Below, piece by piece: positions 4,624-58,978 of a stretch of 64,000 nt of DNA. The stretch's first letter is position 1, and the number at the start of each line of letters is the position of its first letter. The translations under genes and the position numbers were made by a program. Source of the stretch: a virus; IMG/VR virus record IMGVR_UViG_3300005613_004097, positions 44,515 through 108,514 of that record; one strand, 5' to 3'. The notes under the pieces are model-generated. The model searched no databases. It was not told the origin of the DNA and worked only from the letters and a program-made list of their open reading frames with translations.

Positions 4624-4797
4624 TAGTCTTGCAGCTTCGTATTGTTTATCGGTTAGAACTTTATAACTTTTGTTTCCAACCGTGACCTTCTCACACCATT
4701 TTGATCTGAGTTGTTTCTGTAAAGAAAGTAAAAACTGGTTGTCACCATCATACTTTCTCAATTGTTTGTTCAGTTCGAGTTTTTCGTTTATTTCCAT
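4615..4797 (-). CDS. Small hypothetical protein
   Basis: 60 residues, basic and helical. It starts 2 nt downstream of the stop of the next upstream gene (4800), so the pair is probably one transcript. No domain is recognised. Confidence 0.55.
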   Translation of the reverse strand: MEINEKLELNKQLRKYDGDNQFLLSLQKQLRSKWCEKVTVGNKSYKVLTDKQYEAARLSL

Positions 4798-54175: not shown

Positions 54176-55780
54176 TTAACCTTTCCAACCCGCTTTCAAT
54201 GATACCGTTCTGTTAAGTGATATACCATCCTTATCAAGAACATAATATCCTTTTCTCATCATTTGAACCACTACTCCTTCTTTTAGGTTTTTAATTTCTG
54301 GTTCAAATATTGCATCATTATTTATTGTCAATGAATCTTTGTTTACCTCATTTATAAAATCATCACTTGGTGTTTCAACATCGAAAAGTCTATCATACTC
54401 GTTTACTCTCATTTTGATACCATACTTACAAGAAACCCAATGAATTGTTCCTTTTATCTTTCTATCAAGTTCTTTACCAGATTCAGACTCAGGATCAAAA
54501 GTACAATGTATTTCAGTTATGTTTCCCAATGAATCTTTTAATACTTCATTTGCTTTTATAACAAATGCTCCTTTCAATCTTACCTCTCCACCTAATTTCA
54601 ATCTGTGATATTTACGATTGGCTTCCTCTCTGAAATCTTCTTTTTCAATAAATATCTCTCTTGTGAAAGGAACCAATCTTTTACCTGATTTCTCATTCTC
54701 TGGATTATTCTCAACCTCACACCATTTAACATCATATTCATTCCAATTTGTAATAACAACCTTTACAGGATCAAAAACACCCATCAATCTATTTGATGTT
54801 TTATTCAATTCTGTTCTTAGAATTTCTTCTAAAAGTGTGTAAGAAACAACTGATTCTCTTTTTGTTACTCCAACTCGATCACAGAATTCTCTAATGCCCG
54901 ATGGTGTGAATCCCCTTCTTCTGAGTCCAGCAATTGTTGGTAACCTTGGATCATCAATACCTTTTACTATACCATTATCAATAAGAGCATTGATCTTTCT
55001 TTTTGACATGATAGTTGAATCAATATTCAAACGAGCAAACTCAGTTTCTTCTGGAAGATTTCCTGACAAATTACAACTTCTAAGAATCCAATTATAAAGT
55101 GGTCTATGTACTTCAAATTCCAATGTGCAAAGTGAATCGGTTACTCCTTCTATATAATCACTCAGAGGATGAGCAAAATCATACATAGGATATATCTTCC
55201 AATTATCACCAGTTCTGTGATGTGGTATTTCAATTATTCTGTAAATAACAGGATCTCTTAATATCATATTTGAATGTGACATATCAATTTTGACTCTCAA
55301 AGTCATTGACCCTTCTTTGAATTCACCTGATCTCATTCTTTCGAAAAGATTCAAATTTTCTTCAATGGTTCTATTTCTGAATGGTGAGTTGATACCAGGT
55401 TTGGTTGGAGTTCCTTTCATTTTAGCAATCTCTTCTGATGTTGAATCATCAACATAAGCCATTCCCTTTTTTATTAAAGTGATTGCACATTCATAAATAA
55501 AATCAAAATAATCCGAAGTGAATTTAATATCACTTGGTTTAAATCCAAGCCATTCAACATCTTTAATGATGGATTCAACATATTCTGTTTTTTCAGTTGT
55601 TGGGTTCGTATCATCAAACCTGAGTGTACAAGGAGCATTGTACTTTTCTGCCAATCCAAAATTCAAACAAATTGATTTTGCATGACCAATATGGAGTCCT
55701 GAGTTTGGTTCAGGTGGAAAACGAAGTTTCAATTTATCTAAGTTTCCTTTTTCTAATATTTTTTCTTCTATAAAATTCAT
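54176..55780 (-). CDS. glnS: Glutaminyl-tRNA synthetase
   Basis: 534 residues, close to the full bacterial GlnRS length. Class I motifs: PPEPNSGLHIGHAKS (HIGH at 30-33) and STIMSKRKI (MSK, near residue 257). FRNRTIEENLNLFERM, GDNWKIYPMYDFAHP and two C-terminal anticodon-binding beta-barrels are present. The SICLNFGLAEKY segment is typical of GlnRS rather than GluRS. It charges tRNA-Gln. The gene sits downstream of three tRNA-Gln genes and a Gln-rich leader with a terminator, so its expression is probably attenuation-controlled. A 22-residue ORF overlaps its start. Confidence 0.92.
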   Translation of the reverse strand: MNFIEEKILEKGNLDKLKLRFPPEPNSGLHIGHAKSICLNFGLAEKYNAPCTLRFDDTNPTTEKTEYVESIIKDVEWLGFKPSDIKFTSDYFDFIYECAITLIKKGMAYVDDSTSEEIAKMKGTPTKPGINSPFRNRTIEENLNLFERMRSGEFKEGSMTLRVKIDMSHSNMILRDPVIYRIIEIPHHRTGDNWKIYPMYDFAHPLSDYIEGVTDSLCTLEFEVHRPLYNWILRSCNLSGNLPEETEFARLNIDSTIMSKRKINALIDNGIVKGIDDPRLPTIAGLRRRGFTPSGIREFCDRVGVTKRESVVSYTLLEEILRTELNKTSNRLMGVFDPVKVVITNWNEYDVKWCEVENNPENEKSGKRLVPFTREIFIEKEDFREEANRKYHRLKLGGEVRLKGAFVIKANEVLKDSLGNITEIHCTFDPESESGKELDRKIKGTIHWVSCKYGIKMRVNEYDRLFDVETPSDDFINEVNKDSLTINNDAIFEPEIKNLKEGVVVQMMRKGYYVLDKDGISLNRTVSLKAGWKG

Positions 55781-55845
55781 TTTTTTAATATTTTAATTGC
55801 TATTTCTGTTTTTTCTTTATTCAATCCTAATAATATTGTTTTCAT
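55777..55845 (-). CDS. 22-residue ORF coupled to glnS
   Basis: Reads MKTILLGLNKEKTEIAIKIL and ends KK; its TGA overlaps the glnS ATG and its ATG lies 1 nt after the preceding stop. It has no Gln codons, so it is not a codon sensor; it may set glnS translation by coupling. Confidence 0.5.
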   Translation of the reverse strand: MKTILLGLNKEKTEIAIKILKK

Positions 55846-55846
55846 T

Positions 55847-56209
55847 TTAAAAATCAAAATCTTTTGTTAGTTTTTTAATTATGTAACTTTTTGCACAATC
55901 AGCCAATATTACCGACTCACTCATTCCTTTATTCATCTTTTTATAATATCCGGTTCCTTTACACACTTCACAGTCAAAATCCGCAGTATCAGAATCATTT
56001 GTATCACATTCCCAACACATTTCATTTGATTCATAAGGTTCCAATCTTGTACAACCCGACATATTAGAGTGGTTGAATGAGATCCAATCTACCACTTCAT
56101 AACTTTTTTCATTCCCATAACTTACGGTTACGGTTCTATACTTATTGATGATAACTAAACCGATATCATCTATCTTAACTATATTTCCTGTGTTGAATCT
56201 TCTTACCAT
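55847..56209 (-). CDS. Small zinc-finger protein
   Basis: 120 residues. MCWECDTND, then FDCEVCKGTGYY, form a DnaJ-type zinc finger (CxxC...CxxCxGxG). The N-terminal half is a small beta-rich domain. It lies between the tRNA-Gln genes and glnS in one transcription unit. Confidence 0.6.
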   Translation of the reverse strand: MVRRFNTGNIVKIDDIGLVIINKYRTVTVSYGNEKSYEVVDWISFNHSNMSGCTRLEPYESNEMCWECDTNDSDTADFDCEVCKGTGYYKKMNKGMSESVILADCAKSYIIKKLTKDFDF

Positions 56210-56445
56210 TTTATTGTGTCATTTTTATAAGCTTCTACAAAATCTTCAAATTTAAACTCTCTTTTTTCGGTTGAACTACCACCCCAATATATATCCTCCC
56301 AAACATATTCAACTGAATCATCATTCACATAAACAATATCTCTTATGCAATTTGCATAATCAACTTCCAAGTAATAATCTCCAATGAATCCTTTTGAGAA
56401 TATTGTATTCTCATCCATCCATTTTATAAATTCTTCTCTTTTCAT
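56203..56445 (-). CDS. Hypothetical acidic protein
   Basis: 80 residues beginning MKREEFIKWMDEN, rich in acidic and aromatic residues. It overlaps the zinc-finger gene by 7 nt and follows the tRNA-Gln genes. No family recognised. Confidence 0.55.
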   Translation of the reverse strand: MKREEFIKWMDENTIFSKGFIGDYYLEVDYANCIRDIVYVNDDSVEYVWEDIYWGGSSTEKREFKFEDFVEAYKNDTIKW

Positions 56446-56462
56446 TTCATTTAGTTTTTTAG

Positions 56463-56530
56463 TTGTCCTGGTAGGATTCGAACCTACATAAACTTCTCGT
56501 CTCCTGATTCAAAGTCAGGGACACAGGACA
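56463..56530 (-). tRNA. tRNA-Gln(TTG), D-arm missing, long variable loop
   Basis: 68 nt. Acceptor TGTCCTG/CAGGACA (7 bp), anticodon arm CCTGA-CTTTGAA-TCAGG with anticodon TTG, T-arm GTAGG-TTCGAAT-CCTAC, discriminator A. Only 4 nt (TGTC) connect the acceptor and anticodon stems, so there is no D-arm; the variable region is 15 nt instead of about 5. All remaining stems are perfect. It could be functional in a mitochondria-like form, a decoy, or a decayed tRNA. Confidence 0.75.
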
Positions 56531-56537
56531 ATTTTAG

Positions 56538-56611
56538 ATGGGATGCTCAGAATCGAACTGAGATAAATGGGACCAAAACCCATTGTAATAAAACCGTTAT
56601 ACGACATCCCA
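56538..56611 (-). tRNA. tRNA-Gln(TTG)
   Basis: 74 nt. Acceptor TGGGATG/CATCCCA, D-arm with AACGG, anticodon arm ATGGG-TTTTGGT-CCCAT (anticodon TTG, G37), T-arm CTCAG-TTCGATT-CTGAG. The discriminator appears to be U, which is unusual. Second of three Gln tRNAs in one transcript. Confidence 0.85.
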
Positions 56612-56621
56612 ATATTTTCAG

Positions 56622-56692
56622 TTGCCTTGCCAGGATTCGAACCTGAACTACGAAGGCCAAAACTTCGTGTGCTGCCGTTACACTACAAGGCA
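56622..56692 (-). tRNA. tRNA-Gln(TTG)
   Basis: 71 nt. Acceptor TGCCTTG/CAAGGCA, D-arm with GTGTAACGGCAGCAC, anticodon arm CGAAG-TTTTGGC-CTTCG (anticodon TTG), T-arm TCAGG-TTCGAAT-CCTGG, discriminator A. First tRNA after the attenuator hairpin; its 5' end lies 6 nt beyond the hairpin stem, within or just after the U-run. Confidence 0.9.
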
Positions 56693-56698
56693 ATAAAA

Positions 56699-56727
56699 AA
56701 CCCGTTCAATTTGAGATTGAACGGGTT
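56699..56727 (-). terminator. Intrinsic terminator (attenuator) before tRNA-Gln cluster
   Basis: AACCCGTTCAA pairs with TTGAACGGGTT in a perfect 11-bp stem with a 7-nt loop, followed on the minus strand by a run of U residues. It stands between the Gln-rich leader and three tRNA-Gln genes. A leader segment (56760-56769, GATTGACTGG) can pair 9/10 with 56715-56724 (CCGTTCAATC) of the 5' arm and loop, giving an alternative antiterminator. Confidence 0.85.
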
Positions 56728-56756
56728 TGTATCTTTACTTTTTATCAGACAATACT

Positions 56757-56816
56757 CTACCAGTCAATCTCTCGATCGATTTGCTGTTGTTGGTATTGTT
56801 GAGTAAAAGTTGTCAT
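56757..56816 (-). CDS. Gln-rich attenuator leader peptide
   Basis: 19 residues, MTTFTQQYQQQQIDREIDW, with Gln at codons 6, 7, 9, 10, 11 and 12 (five CAA, one CAG). The antiterminator strand covers its last four codons (from the third base of codon 16 to the end of codon 19). A ribosome held at the Gln codons would leave that strand free, whereas one reaching the UAG stop would cover it and let the terminator form. Phage-type box TAATATATAA lies 4 nt upstream; host-type TACATTTG lies 35 nt upstream. Confidence 0.85.
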   Translation of the reverse strand: MTTFTQQYQQQQIDREIDW

Positions 56817-56820
56817 TTCT

Positions 56821-56883
56821 TTATATATTATATTTTTATTTCTTTGTTTTACAAATGTAAGGATTATTTTTTAATTGACAAAA
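56821..56883 (-). promoter_or_regulatory. Dual promoters of the tRNA-Gln/glnS operon
   Basis: Host-type: TTTG (56879-56882), 19 nt, TACATTTG (56852-56859), a very good Bacteroidota -33/-7 pair. Phage-type: TAATATATAA (56821-56830) adjacent to the leader ATG. The same order of promoters occurs before the tRNA-Asp leader. Confidence 0.75.
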
Positions 56884-58544: not shown

Positions 58545-58545
58545 G

Positions 58546-58641
58546 TCAGGGAAGGGGGATTCGAACCCCCGGAAGACGCACCCCTTGCGCCTTCACCAGA
58601 TTCCAAGTCTGGCCGCTTCAACCTAACTCGCGCATTCCCTG
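58546..58641 (-). tRNA. Serine-type (class II) tRNA with anticodon TGG (Pro codon CCA)
   Basis: 96 nt. Acceptor CAGGGAA/TTCCCTG, a serine-like D-region (CGAGTTAGGTTGAAG), anticodon arm CCAGA-CTTGGAA-TCTGG giving anticodon TGG, a 25-nt variable region with a 9-bp stem (GAAGGCGCA/TGCGTCTTC), and T-arm GGGGG-TTCGAAT-CCCCC; discriminator A. A normal tRNA-Ser(UGA) loop would read CTTGAAA; one base change at position 36 gives UGG. Since SerRS reads the long arm, not the anticodon, mischarging is conceivable. Charging is unknown. Confidence 0.8.
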
Positions 58642-58649
58642 ATATTTAG

Positions 58650-58726
58650 CGGTCCTAGTCGGATTCGAACCGACCTGTTATTCTCCTGTGACAGAGGAGT
58701 AGCCACACCAAGCAGCCCCTAGGACC
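58650..58726 (-). tRNA. tRNA-Asp(GTC)
   Basis: 77 nt. Acceptor GGTCCTA/TAGGACC, anticodon arm CTCCT-CTGTCAC-AGGAG (anticodon GTC), T-arm GTCGG-TTCGAAT-CCGAC, discriminator G as expected for Asp. It is the first gene after the Asp-codon leader and terminator; its 5' end is 7 nt past the hairpin stem. Confidence 0.92.
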
Positions 58727-58733
58727 ATAAAAA

Positions 58734-58763
58734 AACCCAGTTAATCTTTTGACTAACTGGGTT
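58734..58763 (-). terminator. Intrinsic terminator (attenuator) before tRNA-Asp
   Basis: AACCCAGTTA pairs with TAACTGGGTT in a perfect 10-bp stem with a 10-nt loop, followed by seven U on the minus strand. The leader segment at 58809-58818 (TGACTAACTG) pairs 10/10 with 58750-58759 (CAGTTAGTCA) of the 5' arm and loop, giving an antiterminator. An earlier segment, 58861-58869 (CAGTTAATC), can pair 8/9 with the same leader strand, completing a 1-2-3-4 layout. Confidence 0.88.
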
Positions 58764-58789
58764 TGTTTCATTGGGTTATATTTTCAATA

Positions 58790-58891
58790 TCAACTCATAA
58801 AAACAAAGCAGTTAGTCACTATACGATCCGGATCGAGATCGTTCAAGCCTTTCGGTTGAGGATTAACTGATATGTTTTTAATTGTTTTCAT
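58790..58891 (-). CDS. Asp-codon attenuator leader peptide
   Basis: 33 residues; the key part is PKGLNDLDPDRIV with Asp at codons 18, 20 and 22 and Pro at codons 11, 13 and 21. The antiterminator strand begins 8 nt after the last Asp codon. TTAATATATA lies 6 nt before the ATG, and a host-type -33/-7 pair (58939-58968) lies further upstream. The downstream tRNAs decode Asp and, by anticodon, Pro CCA, matching both enriched residues. Confidence 0.8.
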   Translation of the reverse strand: MKTIKNISVNPQPKGLNDLDPDRIVTNCFVFMS

Positions 58892-58897
58892 TATTAC

Positions 58898-58978
58898 TAT
58901 ATATTAAAATATTTTTCTTCCTTTTTTATTTTAGACTACAAAGATACAAAAGTTTTTTAATTGCCAAAATTTATTTTA
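58898..58978 (-). repeat. Duplicated promoter cassette, copy 1
   Basis: An 81-bp segment nearly identical to 59400-59481 (one extra T there). In transcription order it holds TTTG (58965-58968), 18 nt, TATCTTTG (58939-58946), and about 33 nt later TTAATATATA (58898-58907). It drives the Asp leader/tRNA operon. Confidence 0.8.

What the first reader, a model, noticed from the sequence alone, without database searches (positions are those of the whole stretch)
54176..56883. Codon-sensing attenuator controlling a phage tRNA-Gln/GlnRS operon
Seen: a 19-codon leader with six Gln codons, then a perfect 11-bp hairpin with a U-run, then three tRNA-Gln(UUG), small ORFs and a complete GlnRS on the same strand. 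The last leader codons (GATTGACTGG) pair 9/10 (one G-U, one mismatch) with CCGTTCAATC in the terminator 5' arm and loop. Known: trp/his-type attenuation uses exactly this logic. Inferred: when charged tRNA-Gln runs low the ribosome stalls in the Gln run, the antiterminator forms, and the phage makes tRNA-Gln and GlnRS. I know of no phage operon described with this design.
Basis: partly seen in the sequence, partly recalled or inferred. Interest (0 to 1): 0.96.

Follow-up and report, generated by a model that had tools for sequence, protein, structure and literature searches.

The report
Phage tRNA operons with codon-sensing switches
Very large bacteriophages appear to place a tiny decoy gene plus a transcription stop signal in front of most of their tRNA arrays, and in front of several tRNA-charging-enzyme genes, so that these are made only when the ribosome runs short of that particular charged tRNA; the glutamine switch in this window is one of a whole panel covering most amino acids.

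Summary
The window (part of a 108.5-kb IMG/VR virus) has a 19-codon leader with six Gln codons, an antiterminator/terminator pair, three tRNA-Gln(UUG) and a complete GlnRS.

It is not a one-off. A second leader in the window (58891-58790; Pro/Gln/Asp codons) precedes tRNA-Asp and tRNA-Pro. In eight related phages and the 636- and 735-kb huge phages, most tRNA arrays follow a short ORF whose codons match the tRNAs downstream: no within-genome permutation of 20,000 did as well. Units set aside as background proved to be leaders of synthetase genes with matching codons (IIII-IleRS, VVVV-ValRS, LLLL-LeuRS, DD-AspRS, NNNN-AsnRS).

Each leader's 3' part pairs with its own terminator arm better than with shuffled or swapped arms, with compensatory changes. 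Ribosome-masked folding gives the antiterminator when stalled on cognate codons and, for Gln leaders, none at the stop codon.

The mechanism class is known (trp/his/pheST). Its use by a virus, on tRNA arrays, with multi-amino-acid leaders tiled across a genome is, as far as I could find, undescribed. Nothing here was measured in cells.

The parts
56852..56881 (-). Bacteroidetes-type promoter (TTG, 19 nt, TACATTTG) of the Gln leader
   Evidence: Sequence; such a motif occurs within 170 nt upstream of 27/64 leaders vs 5.1% of random positions
56757..56816 (-). Gln leader ORF MTTFTQQYQQQQIDREIDW, six Gln codons
   Evidence: homologous leaders with 4-7 Gln codons in relatives
56760..56769 (-). Antiterminator 5' segment GATTGACTGG (last leader codons)
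   Evidence: Duplex -14.7 kcal/mol vs mean -7.6 for shuffles, 0/300; forms when ribosome masks Gln codons, not when at stop
56698..56728 (-). Intrinsic terminator hairpin of the Gln leader (followed by T-run to about 56693); its 5' arm 56724-56713 pairs with the antiterminator segment
56621..56692 (-). tRNA-Gln(UUG) 1
56537..56611 (-). tRNA-Gln(UUG) 2
56463..56530 (-). tRNA-Gln(UUG) 3, without D arm
   Evidence: Rfam tRNA 39.9 bits
56203..56445 (-). Small ORF of the operon, 80 aa, no family
55847..56209 (-). Small ORF of the operon, 120 aa, no family above cut-off
54176..55780 (-). Glutaminyl-tRNA synthetase, 534 aa
   Evidence: Pfam, NCBIfam glnS
58939..58967 (-). Bacteroidetes-type promoter (TTG, 18 nt, TATCTTTG) of the second leader
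   Evidence: Sequence
58790..58891 (-). Second leader ORF MKTIKNISVNPQPKGLNDLDPDRIVTNCFVFMS, Pro/Gln/Asp codons
   Evidence: conserved as NPQPQ..DQDP in relatives
58809..58818 (-). Antiterminator segment TGACTAACTG of the second leader, pairs with CAGTTAGTCA (58759-58750)
   Evidence: -14.3 kcal/mol, 0/300 shuffles as good
58733..58764 (-). Intrinsic terminator of the second leader
58649..58726 (-). tRNA-Asp(GUC)
58545..58642 (-). tRNA-Pro(UGG)

Best explanation
The locus is a ribosome-mediated (trp/his/pheST-type) transcription attenuator that gates a phage tRNA-Gln/GlnRS operon, and one of about seven or more such gates per genome in huge Bacteroidetes phages. RNA polymerase starts at the leader promoter and a ribosome begins the short leader ORF. 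If Gln-tRNA(Gln) is plentiful, the ribosome runs to the stop codon and covers the antiterminator segment; the terminator forms and transcription stops before the tRNAs. If charged tRNA-Gln is scarce, the ribosome stalls on the Gln run and leaves the segment free; it pairs with the terminator 5' arm, the terminator cannot form, and tRNA-Gln plus GlnRS are made, restoring supply. Sister leaders do the same for other amino acids, several at once. Shown here by sequence: leader, cognate codons, terminator, exclusive pairing, compensatory changes, recurrence. Inferred: translation of the leader, stalling, read-through and induction in the cell.
For: (1) Leader residues match downstream tRNA isotypes: 38.5% vs 16.5% expected over 65 leaders, 0/20000 within-genome permutations; in each of the seven genomes tested alone the true assignment is reached by only 3-7 of 20000 permutations. 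(2) Which synonymous codon is used also fits the array's anticodons: 125/171 vs 92.6 expected, z 5.4. (3) 14 leaders upstream of synthetase genes hold 60 cognate residues vs 15.5 expected, 0/100000 permutations; with one leader per synthetase kind the true pairing is the single best of 5040. (4) Antiterminator: 46/65 leaders z<-2 vs 15/69 other ORF+terminator units, p=1.8e-12, several of those 15 being the synthetase leaders; own terminator better than another type's in 1988/2146 swaps; within type 0/4000 permutations, z -5.9; Arg/Ser type 97.9% paired with double changes at 4 of 8 pairs. (5) Masked folding: 0.63 of the terminator arm held when stalled on cognate codons, 0.20 at stop (0.00 for Gln leaders), 0.00 with the ribosome on the segment. 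(6) Phages that divide the amino acids differently have leaders that follow their own division, e.g. LSLCLSLSLSL for Leu/Ser/Cys, IAIVEIAVIGGAEEG for Glu/Ala/Ile/Val/Gly.
Against: No expression, ribosome-profiling or charging data were available for these uncultured phages. In several longer leader types (Asn/Leu/Val/Thr, Phe/His/Trp, Glu/Tyr) the antiterminator segment lies upstream of a ribosome sitting at the stop codon and is not, or only partly, covered there, so shut-off would rely on timing or on the moving ribosome. Without any ribosome most leaders favour the antiterminator, so loss of translation should switch them on; the window copy is the one Gln leader with a clear protector hairpin. 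Within-type covariation is not seen for the Pro/Asp type. Some tRNA genes have no detected leader, notably 37 of 59 in the fetched regions of the 735-kb phage by the strict rule, though inspection found more leaders there.
Confidence: 0.91

Rival explanations
1. The leader ORFs encode functional small proteins and the terminators simply end upstream transcripts; the tRNA arrays have their own promoters downstream.
For: Terminators are normal at operon ends; in some phages the Gln leader follows directly after a tRNA-Pro array.
Against: Peptide composition tracks the tRNA isotypes and synthetase downstream and repartitions when arrays are repartitioned. The leader nucleotide sequence is complementary to its own terminator arm with compensatory changes. 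tRNA genes begin 7-23 nt after many of the terminators, leaving no room for a promoter.
Confidence: 0.03
2. A tRNA-binding leader RNA (T-box-like) that senses uncharged tRNA directly, without translation.
For: The regulated genes (tRNA synthetases) are typical T-box targets (general knowledge; PMC1262725).
Against: No T-box match in the window with Rfam at gathering score, nor at E<=0.1 around the leaders; runs of 4-6 cognate codons inside an ATG-started ORF ending at a near-constant distance from the terminator are not needed for a T-box, which uses a single specifier codon (general knowledge).
Confidence: 0.02
3. Leader translation matters, but as a general translation-failure sensor rather than an amino-acid-specific one: any stop in translation lets the antiterminator form.
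For: With no ribosome 44/64 leaders favour the antiterminator.
Against: Does not explain why each leader carries the codons of its own array, or the synonymous-codon match.
Confidence: 0.04

Closest known systems
Leader-peptide attenuators of bacterial synthetase genes (pheST in gamma-proteobacteria; trpS and leuS in Streptomyces; PMC1262725)
   Same: Short ORF with runs of cognate codons, antiterminator/terminator choice, synthetase gene downstream.
   Different: Here in viruses, for Gln, Ile, Leu, Val, Asp, Asn and probably His/Ser/Thr enzymes, and tied to tRNA arrays; 80 bacterial GlnRS loci checked had no such leader.
trp/his/thr/ilv biosynthetic attenuators (PMC1183508)
   Same: Same ribosome-versus-polymerase race; multi-amino-acid leaders as in thr and ilv (general knowledge).
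   Different: Controlled genes are tRNAs and synthetases rather than biosynthesis; many leaders lack a protector hairpin, so absence of translation should switch them on.
T-box riboswitches
   Same: Sense charging state and regulate synthetases by antitermination.
   Different: No T-box RNA here; sensing is through codons of a leader ORF.
tRNA arrays of phages T4 and T5
   Same: Clusters of phage tRNA genes.
   Different: No leader-ORF-plus-terminator unit found in the T4 or T5 array regions.
Huge (Mahaphage) tRNA and synthetase repertoires, PMC7162821
   Same: Genomes of the sizes reported there (634, 636, 642, 735 kb) are where the system was found; up to 67 tRNAs and 15 synthetases per genome reported for huge phages.
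   Different: The paper's main text does not contain the word leader; this control was not described there.

Membership tests
[quoted passage not shown]
Ribosome-mediated transcription attenuators | Intrinsic terminator between leader ORF and first regulated gene | tested here: met
Ribosome-mediated transcription attenuators | Mutually exclusive antiterminator that uses the terminator 5' arm | tested here: met
Ribosome-mediated transcription attenuators | Stalled ribosome favours antiterminator, ribosome at stop favours terminator | tested here: met
   In silico only: Gln leaders 0.66 vs 0.00; all types 0.63 vs 0.20. Not clear-cut in the longer leader types
Ribosome-mediated transcription attenuators | Protector hairpin that gives termination without translation (present in trp, not in every attenuator) | tested here: inconclusive
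   Present in the window copy; absent or weak in most relatives
Ribosome-mediated transcription attenuators | Leader is translated; read-through rises when the cognate charged tRNA falls | not testable with these tools
   No expression data available for these uncultured phages
T-box riboswitch | T-box RNA recognised by the Rfam model | tested here: not met
   No match
Mahaphage clade | Clade placement by conserved phage proteins | not tested
   Only GlnRS identity (71% and 65% to the 634- and 642-kb genomes) and shared leaders link the window to it; clade assignment of genomes of those sizes from PMC7162821

The most novel reading that the evidence does not exclude
These phages carry a genome-wide panel of ribosome-read sensors, each reporting the charged level of one or a few tRNAs, so that replacement tRNAs and synthetases are made only when that species is depleted, for example when a host anticodon nuclease cuts it or the host starves. 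The phage would thus detect and answer tRNA-cutting defences through the ribosome itself, amino acid by amino acid.
Probability: 0.5. Interest if true: 0.97.

Novelty: new variant of a known kind. Interest (0 to 1): 0.94.

Why it matters
Why large phages carry dozens of tRNAs is a standing question, usually answered by codon usage or by anticodon-nuclease defence. On-demand control through codon-sensing attenuators says that supply is matched to measured shortage, array by array, and gives a direct test of which explanation holds: find what triggers each switch. It also extends leader-peptide attenuation to viruses and to tRNA genes, and offers a simple signature (leader codons, terminator, tRNA array) for finding such control in other phages.

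Tried and rejected
One ORF+terminator+tRNA unit (L104, MSDEEYVDV.. before Arg/Trp) does not match and is taken as chance. T-box reading rejected. Host origin of the element: no leader or tRNA-Gln upstream of 80 bacterial GlnRS genes. MAFFT alignment A2 of Gln leaders contained one wrong interval (L086) and was not used for counts. The Tenacibaculum phage PTm1 stretch was uninformative as control (no tRNAs). Paper searches for phage tRNA attenuators found nothing; many subscription papers are not in that library.
Full report
What is in the window. All features are on the minus strand. From 56816 to 56757 runs a 19-codon ORF, MTTFTQQYQQQQIDREIDW, with six Gln codons; 28 nt after its stop begins a perfect hairpin followed by a T-run; seven nucleotides further on the first of three tRNA-Gln(UUG) genes starts, then two small ORFs and a complete GlnRS. 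The third tRNA lacks a D arm and is seen only by the Rfam model. A Bacteroidetes-type promoter lies directly upstream.

Conservation. Relatives with 61-71% identical GlnRS, including two huge phages (LR745206, 634 kb; LR756502, 642 kb), have a leader with 4-7 Gln codons and a terminator in the same place. Further Gln leaders were found in a 508-kb phage (MNNLVQQVQQQQINLMIDWTRIG), in a contig with a more distant GlnRS (MTYFYDIFQQQQQQSERSDRL..), and before tRNA-Gln in other contigs (MNNNISNMIQQQQQTYV, MKTIFVQQQQQQTLS..). In L004 the Gln leader stands before GlnRS without tRNAs. A relative that has GlnRS but no tRNAs (L008/L285) has no leader. None of 80 bacterial GlnRS loci, mostly Bacteroidota, has a Gln leader or tRNA-Gln upstream.

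A second leader, then a whole set. Upstream of tRNA-Asp and tRNA-Pro in the same window is MKTIKNISVNPQPKGLNDLDPDRIVTNCFVFMS, again followed by a terminator, and its relatives keep NPQPQ..DQDP. Scanning the tRNA clusters of eight related phages then showed a short ORF plus terminator before almost every cluster, with leader composition matching the cluster: Phe/His/Trp/Lys (THKHFSKSSKWF), Arg/Ser (SKSSSSRSS), Glu/Tyr (YYYEGE), Ile/Gly/Ala (SIAIIAGGAG), Asn/Leu/Val/Thr/Ile/Arg (NLNMNMNTLTVVNNTLCIR), Leu (NLLNLMETL), Pro/Asp/Gln and Gln. Of the tRNAs in the fetched stretches, 50/58, 43/46, 48/53, 22/22, 32/33, 41/46 and 38/39 lie behind a leader in W01, W02, G001, G002, G004, G005 and G006.

Statistics. 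Leaders were chosen by a composition-blind rule (longest ATG ORF ending 15-36 nt before the hairpin). Over 65 leaders, 38.5% of residues are cognate to the downstream tRNAs against 16.5% expected; none of 20,000 within-genome permutations reached the observed excess, and in the seven genomes tested alone only 3 to 7 of 20,000 did, i.e. the true assignment is the best or among the best few of 5040 possible. Where synonymous codons differ in whether an array tRNA reads them, the leader uses the readable ones more than phage codon usage predicts, 125 of 171 against 92.6. The 636-kb and 735-kb phages divide amino acids differently, and their leaders follow: LSLCLSLSLSL before Leu/Ser/Cys, IAIVEIAVIGGAEEG before Glu/Ala/Ile/Val/Gly, KQQYKQYQPQYK before Tyr/Gln/Lys, TPAPAVAFRRGTGTGTGTCVPAG before Arg/Thr/Val/Ala/Gly/Pro (the last found by inspection, not by the rule).

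Synthetases: an unplanned confirmation. When ORF+terminator units without tRNAs were used as background, those with the strongest antiterminator pairing proved mostly to lie before synthetase genes. NCBIfam identifies these as IleRS, LeuRS, AspRS, AsnRS, ValRS and short HisRS. Their leaders read ..IIII....LLLL....DD....NNNN....VVVV....HFHFHF... Fourteen such leaders hold 60 cognate residues against 15.5 expected, 0/100,000 permutations; with one leader per synthetase kind the true pairing is the single best of 5040. Not every synthetase has its own leader; many sit inside tRNA operons or show none by my rule.

Antiterminator. The leader's 3' part pairs with its terminator 5' arm at a mean of -12.6 kcal/mol; 37 of the first 50 beat 95% of shuffles, and the arm belonging to another leader type is worse in 1988 of 2146 swaps. 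Leaders have a median z of -2.66 against -0.09 for other ORF+terminator units. Within a leader type, own arms pair better than arms swapped between phages (combined z -5.9, 0/4000), strongly for Gln and Arg/Ser, not for Pro/Asp. In the Arg/Ser type, four of eight pairs show changes on both sides, 97.9% of cells pair, and sliding the partner by one base lowers this to 60% or less.

How it would work. With a footprint masked at Gln codons, the window leader forms the antiterminator before the terminator's 3' arm is made; with the ribosome at the stop codon it cannot, and only the terminator remains; with no ribosome the window copy forms a protector hairpin and the terminator. Across 64 leaders the antiterminator holds 0.63 of the terminator arm when stalled at a cognate codon, 0.00 with the ribosome on the segment, 0.20 at the stop (0.00 in Gln leaders), and 0.49 with no ribosome. 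So the stalled/finished contrast is general, but most leaders, unlike trp, should read through when there is no translation at all. In several long leaders the segment is exposed again once the ribosome is at the stop; there, termination would depend on timing. That is an open weakness.

What it is for. Shown: cis-acting anatomy that couples tRNA and synthetase genes to the reading of their own codons. Inferred: feedback supply of charged tRNA during infection. Two triggers are plausible, general amino acid shortage in a cell making much phage protein, and loss of specific tRNAs to host anticodon nucleases, which phage tRNAs are known to counter (abstract of PMC12409363). Choosing between them needs experiments.

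Known or new. Classical attenuators before synthetase genes are known in bacteria (pheST; trpS and leuS in Streptomyces, PMC1262725), and the kinetic principle is modelled in PMC1183508. Papers describing the huge phages and jumbo phages report tRNAs and synthetases; their main texts do not contain the word leader (PMC7162821; PMC7824862, which also lacks attenuat-). Searches for phage or tRNA-array attenuators gave nothing. I therefore class it as a new variant of a known kind: same working principle, new kind of genome, new kind of target, multi-amino-acid and tiled genome-wide.

Noticed in passing
window 58478-57645 (-): 277-aa protein with a Cys-rich N-terminus sits between the two tRNA operons; a similar protein sits at the same place in L009. 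Perhaps a homing endonuclease (guess); no Pfam match above cut-off.
   Followed up: partly
window about 57310-57222 (-): tRNA-like sequence (GTGAGTG...CACTCAC with a TTCGA loop) not called by ARAGORN or Rfam; upstream of a 78-aa ORF.
   Followed up: no
window 56530-56463 (-): D-armless tRNA-Gln(UUG) with a long variable stretch.
   Followed up: partly
window 11650-11576 (-): Isolated tRNA-Arg(UCU) with no leader detected.
   Followed up: no
window 54135-53749 (-): Protein downstream of GlnRS with a cyclic-phosphate processing receiver domain (cREC, 73 bits); near it NUDIX and P-loop (AAA_33) proteins, possibly RNA-repair related.
   Followed up: no
L034 12658-13836 (LR756502): Leader-like ORF MKTLHTYKNVIDWM with strong antiterminator pairing (z -4.7) upstream of a 217-aa protein containing KLDGSN, an RNA-ligase-like motif by eye; no NCBIfam match.
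   Followed up: partly
L031 9831-11099; L321 2085-3365; L028 10425-11057; L323 8717-9349: Phage LeuRS (about 422-427 aa) and HisRS (211 aa) are far shorter than the family models and score below the NCBIfam cut-offs: minimal synthetases.
   Followed up: no
L187 from 7585 (735-kb phage LR756501): Two tRNAs with CUA anticodon (called Pyl by ARAGORN), possible amber suppressors.
   Followed up: no
L001 5244, L014 5211, L054: tRNAs with two- or four-base anticodon calls (gt, gtag, acat) among several tRNA-Asp and other copies.
   Followed up: no
upstream of leaders, e.g. window about 58910-58897, L001 about 4768-4780: Recurrent TTTAATATATA just upstream of leader start codons, perhaps a translation-initiation or transcription signal.
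   Followed up: no
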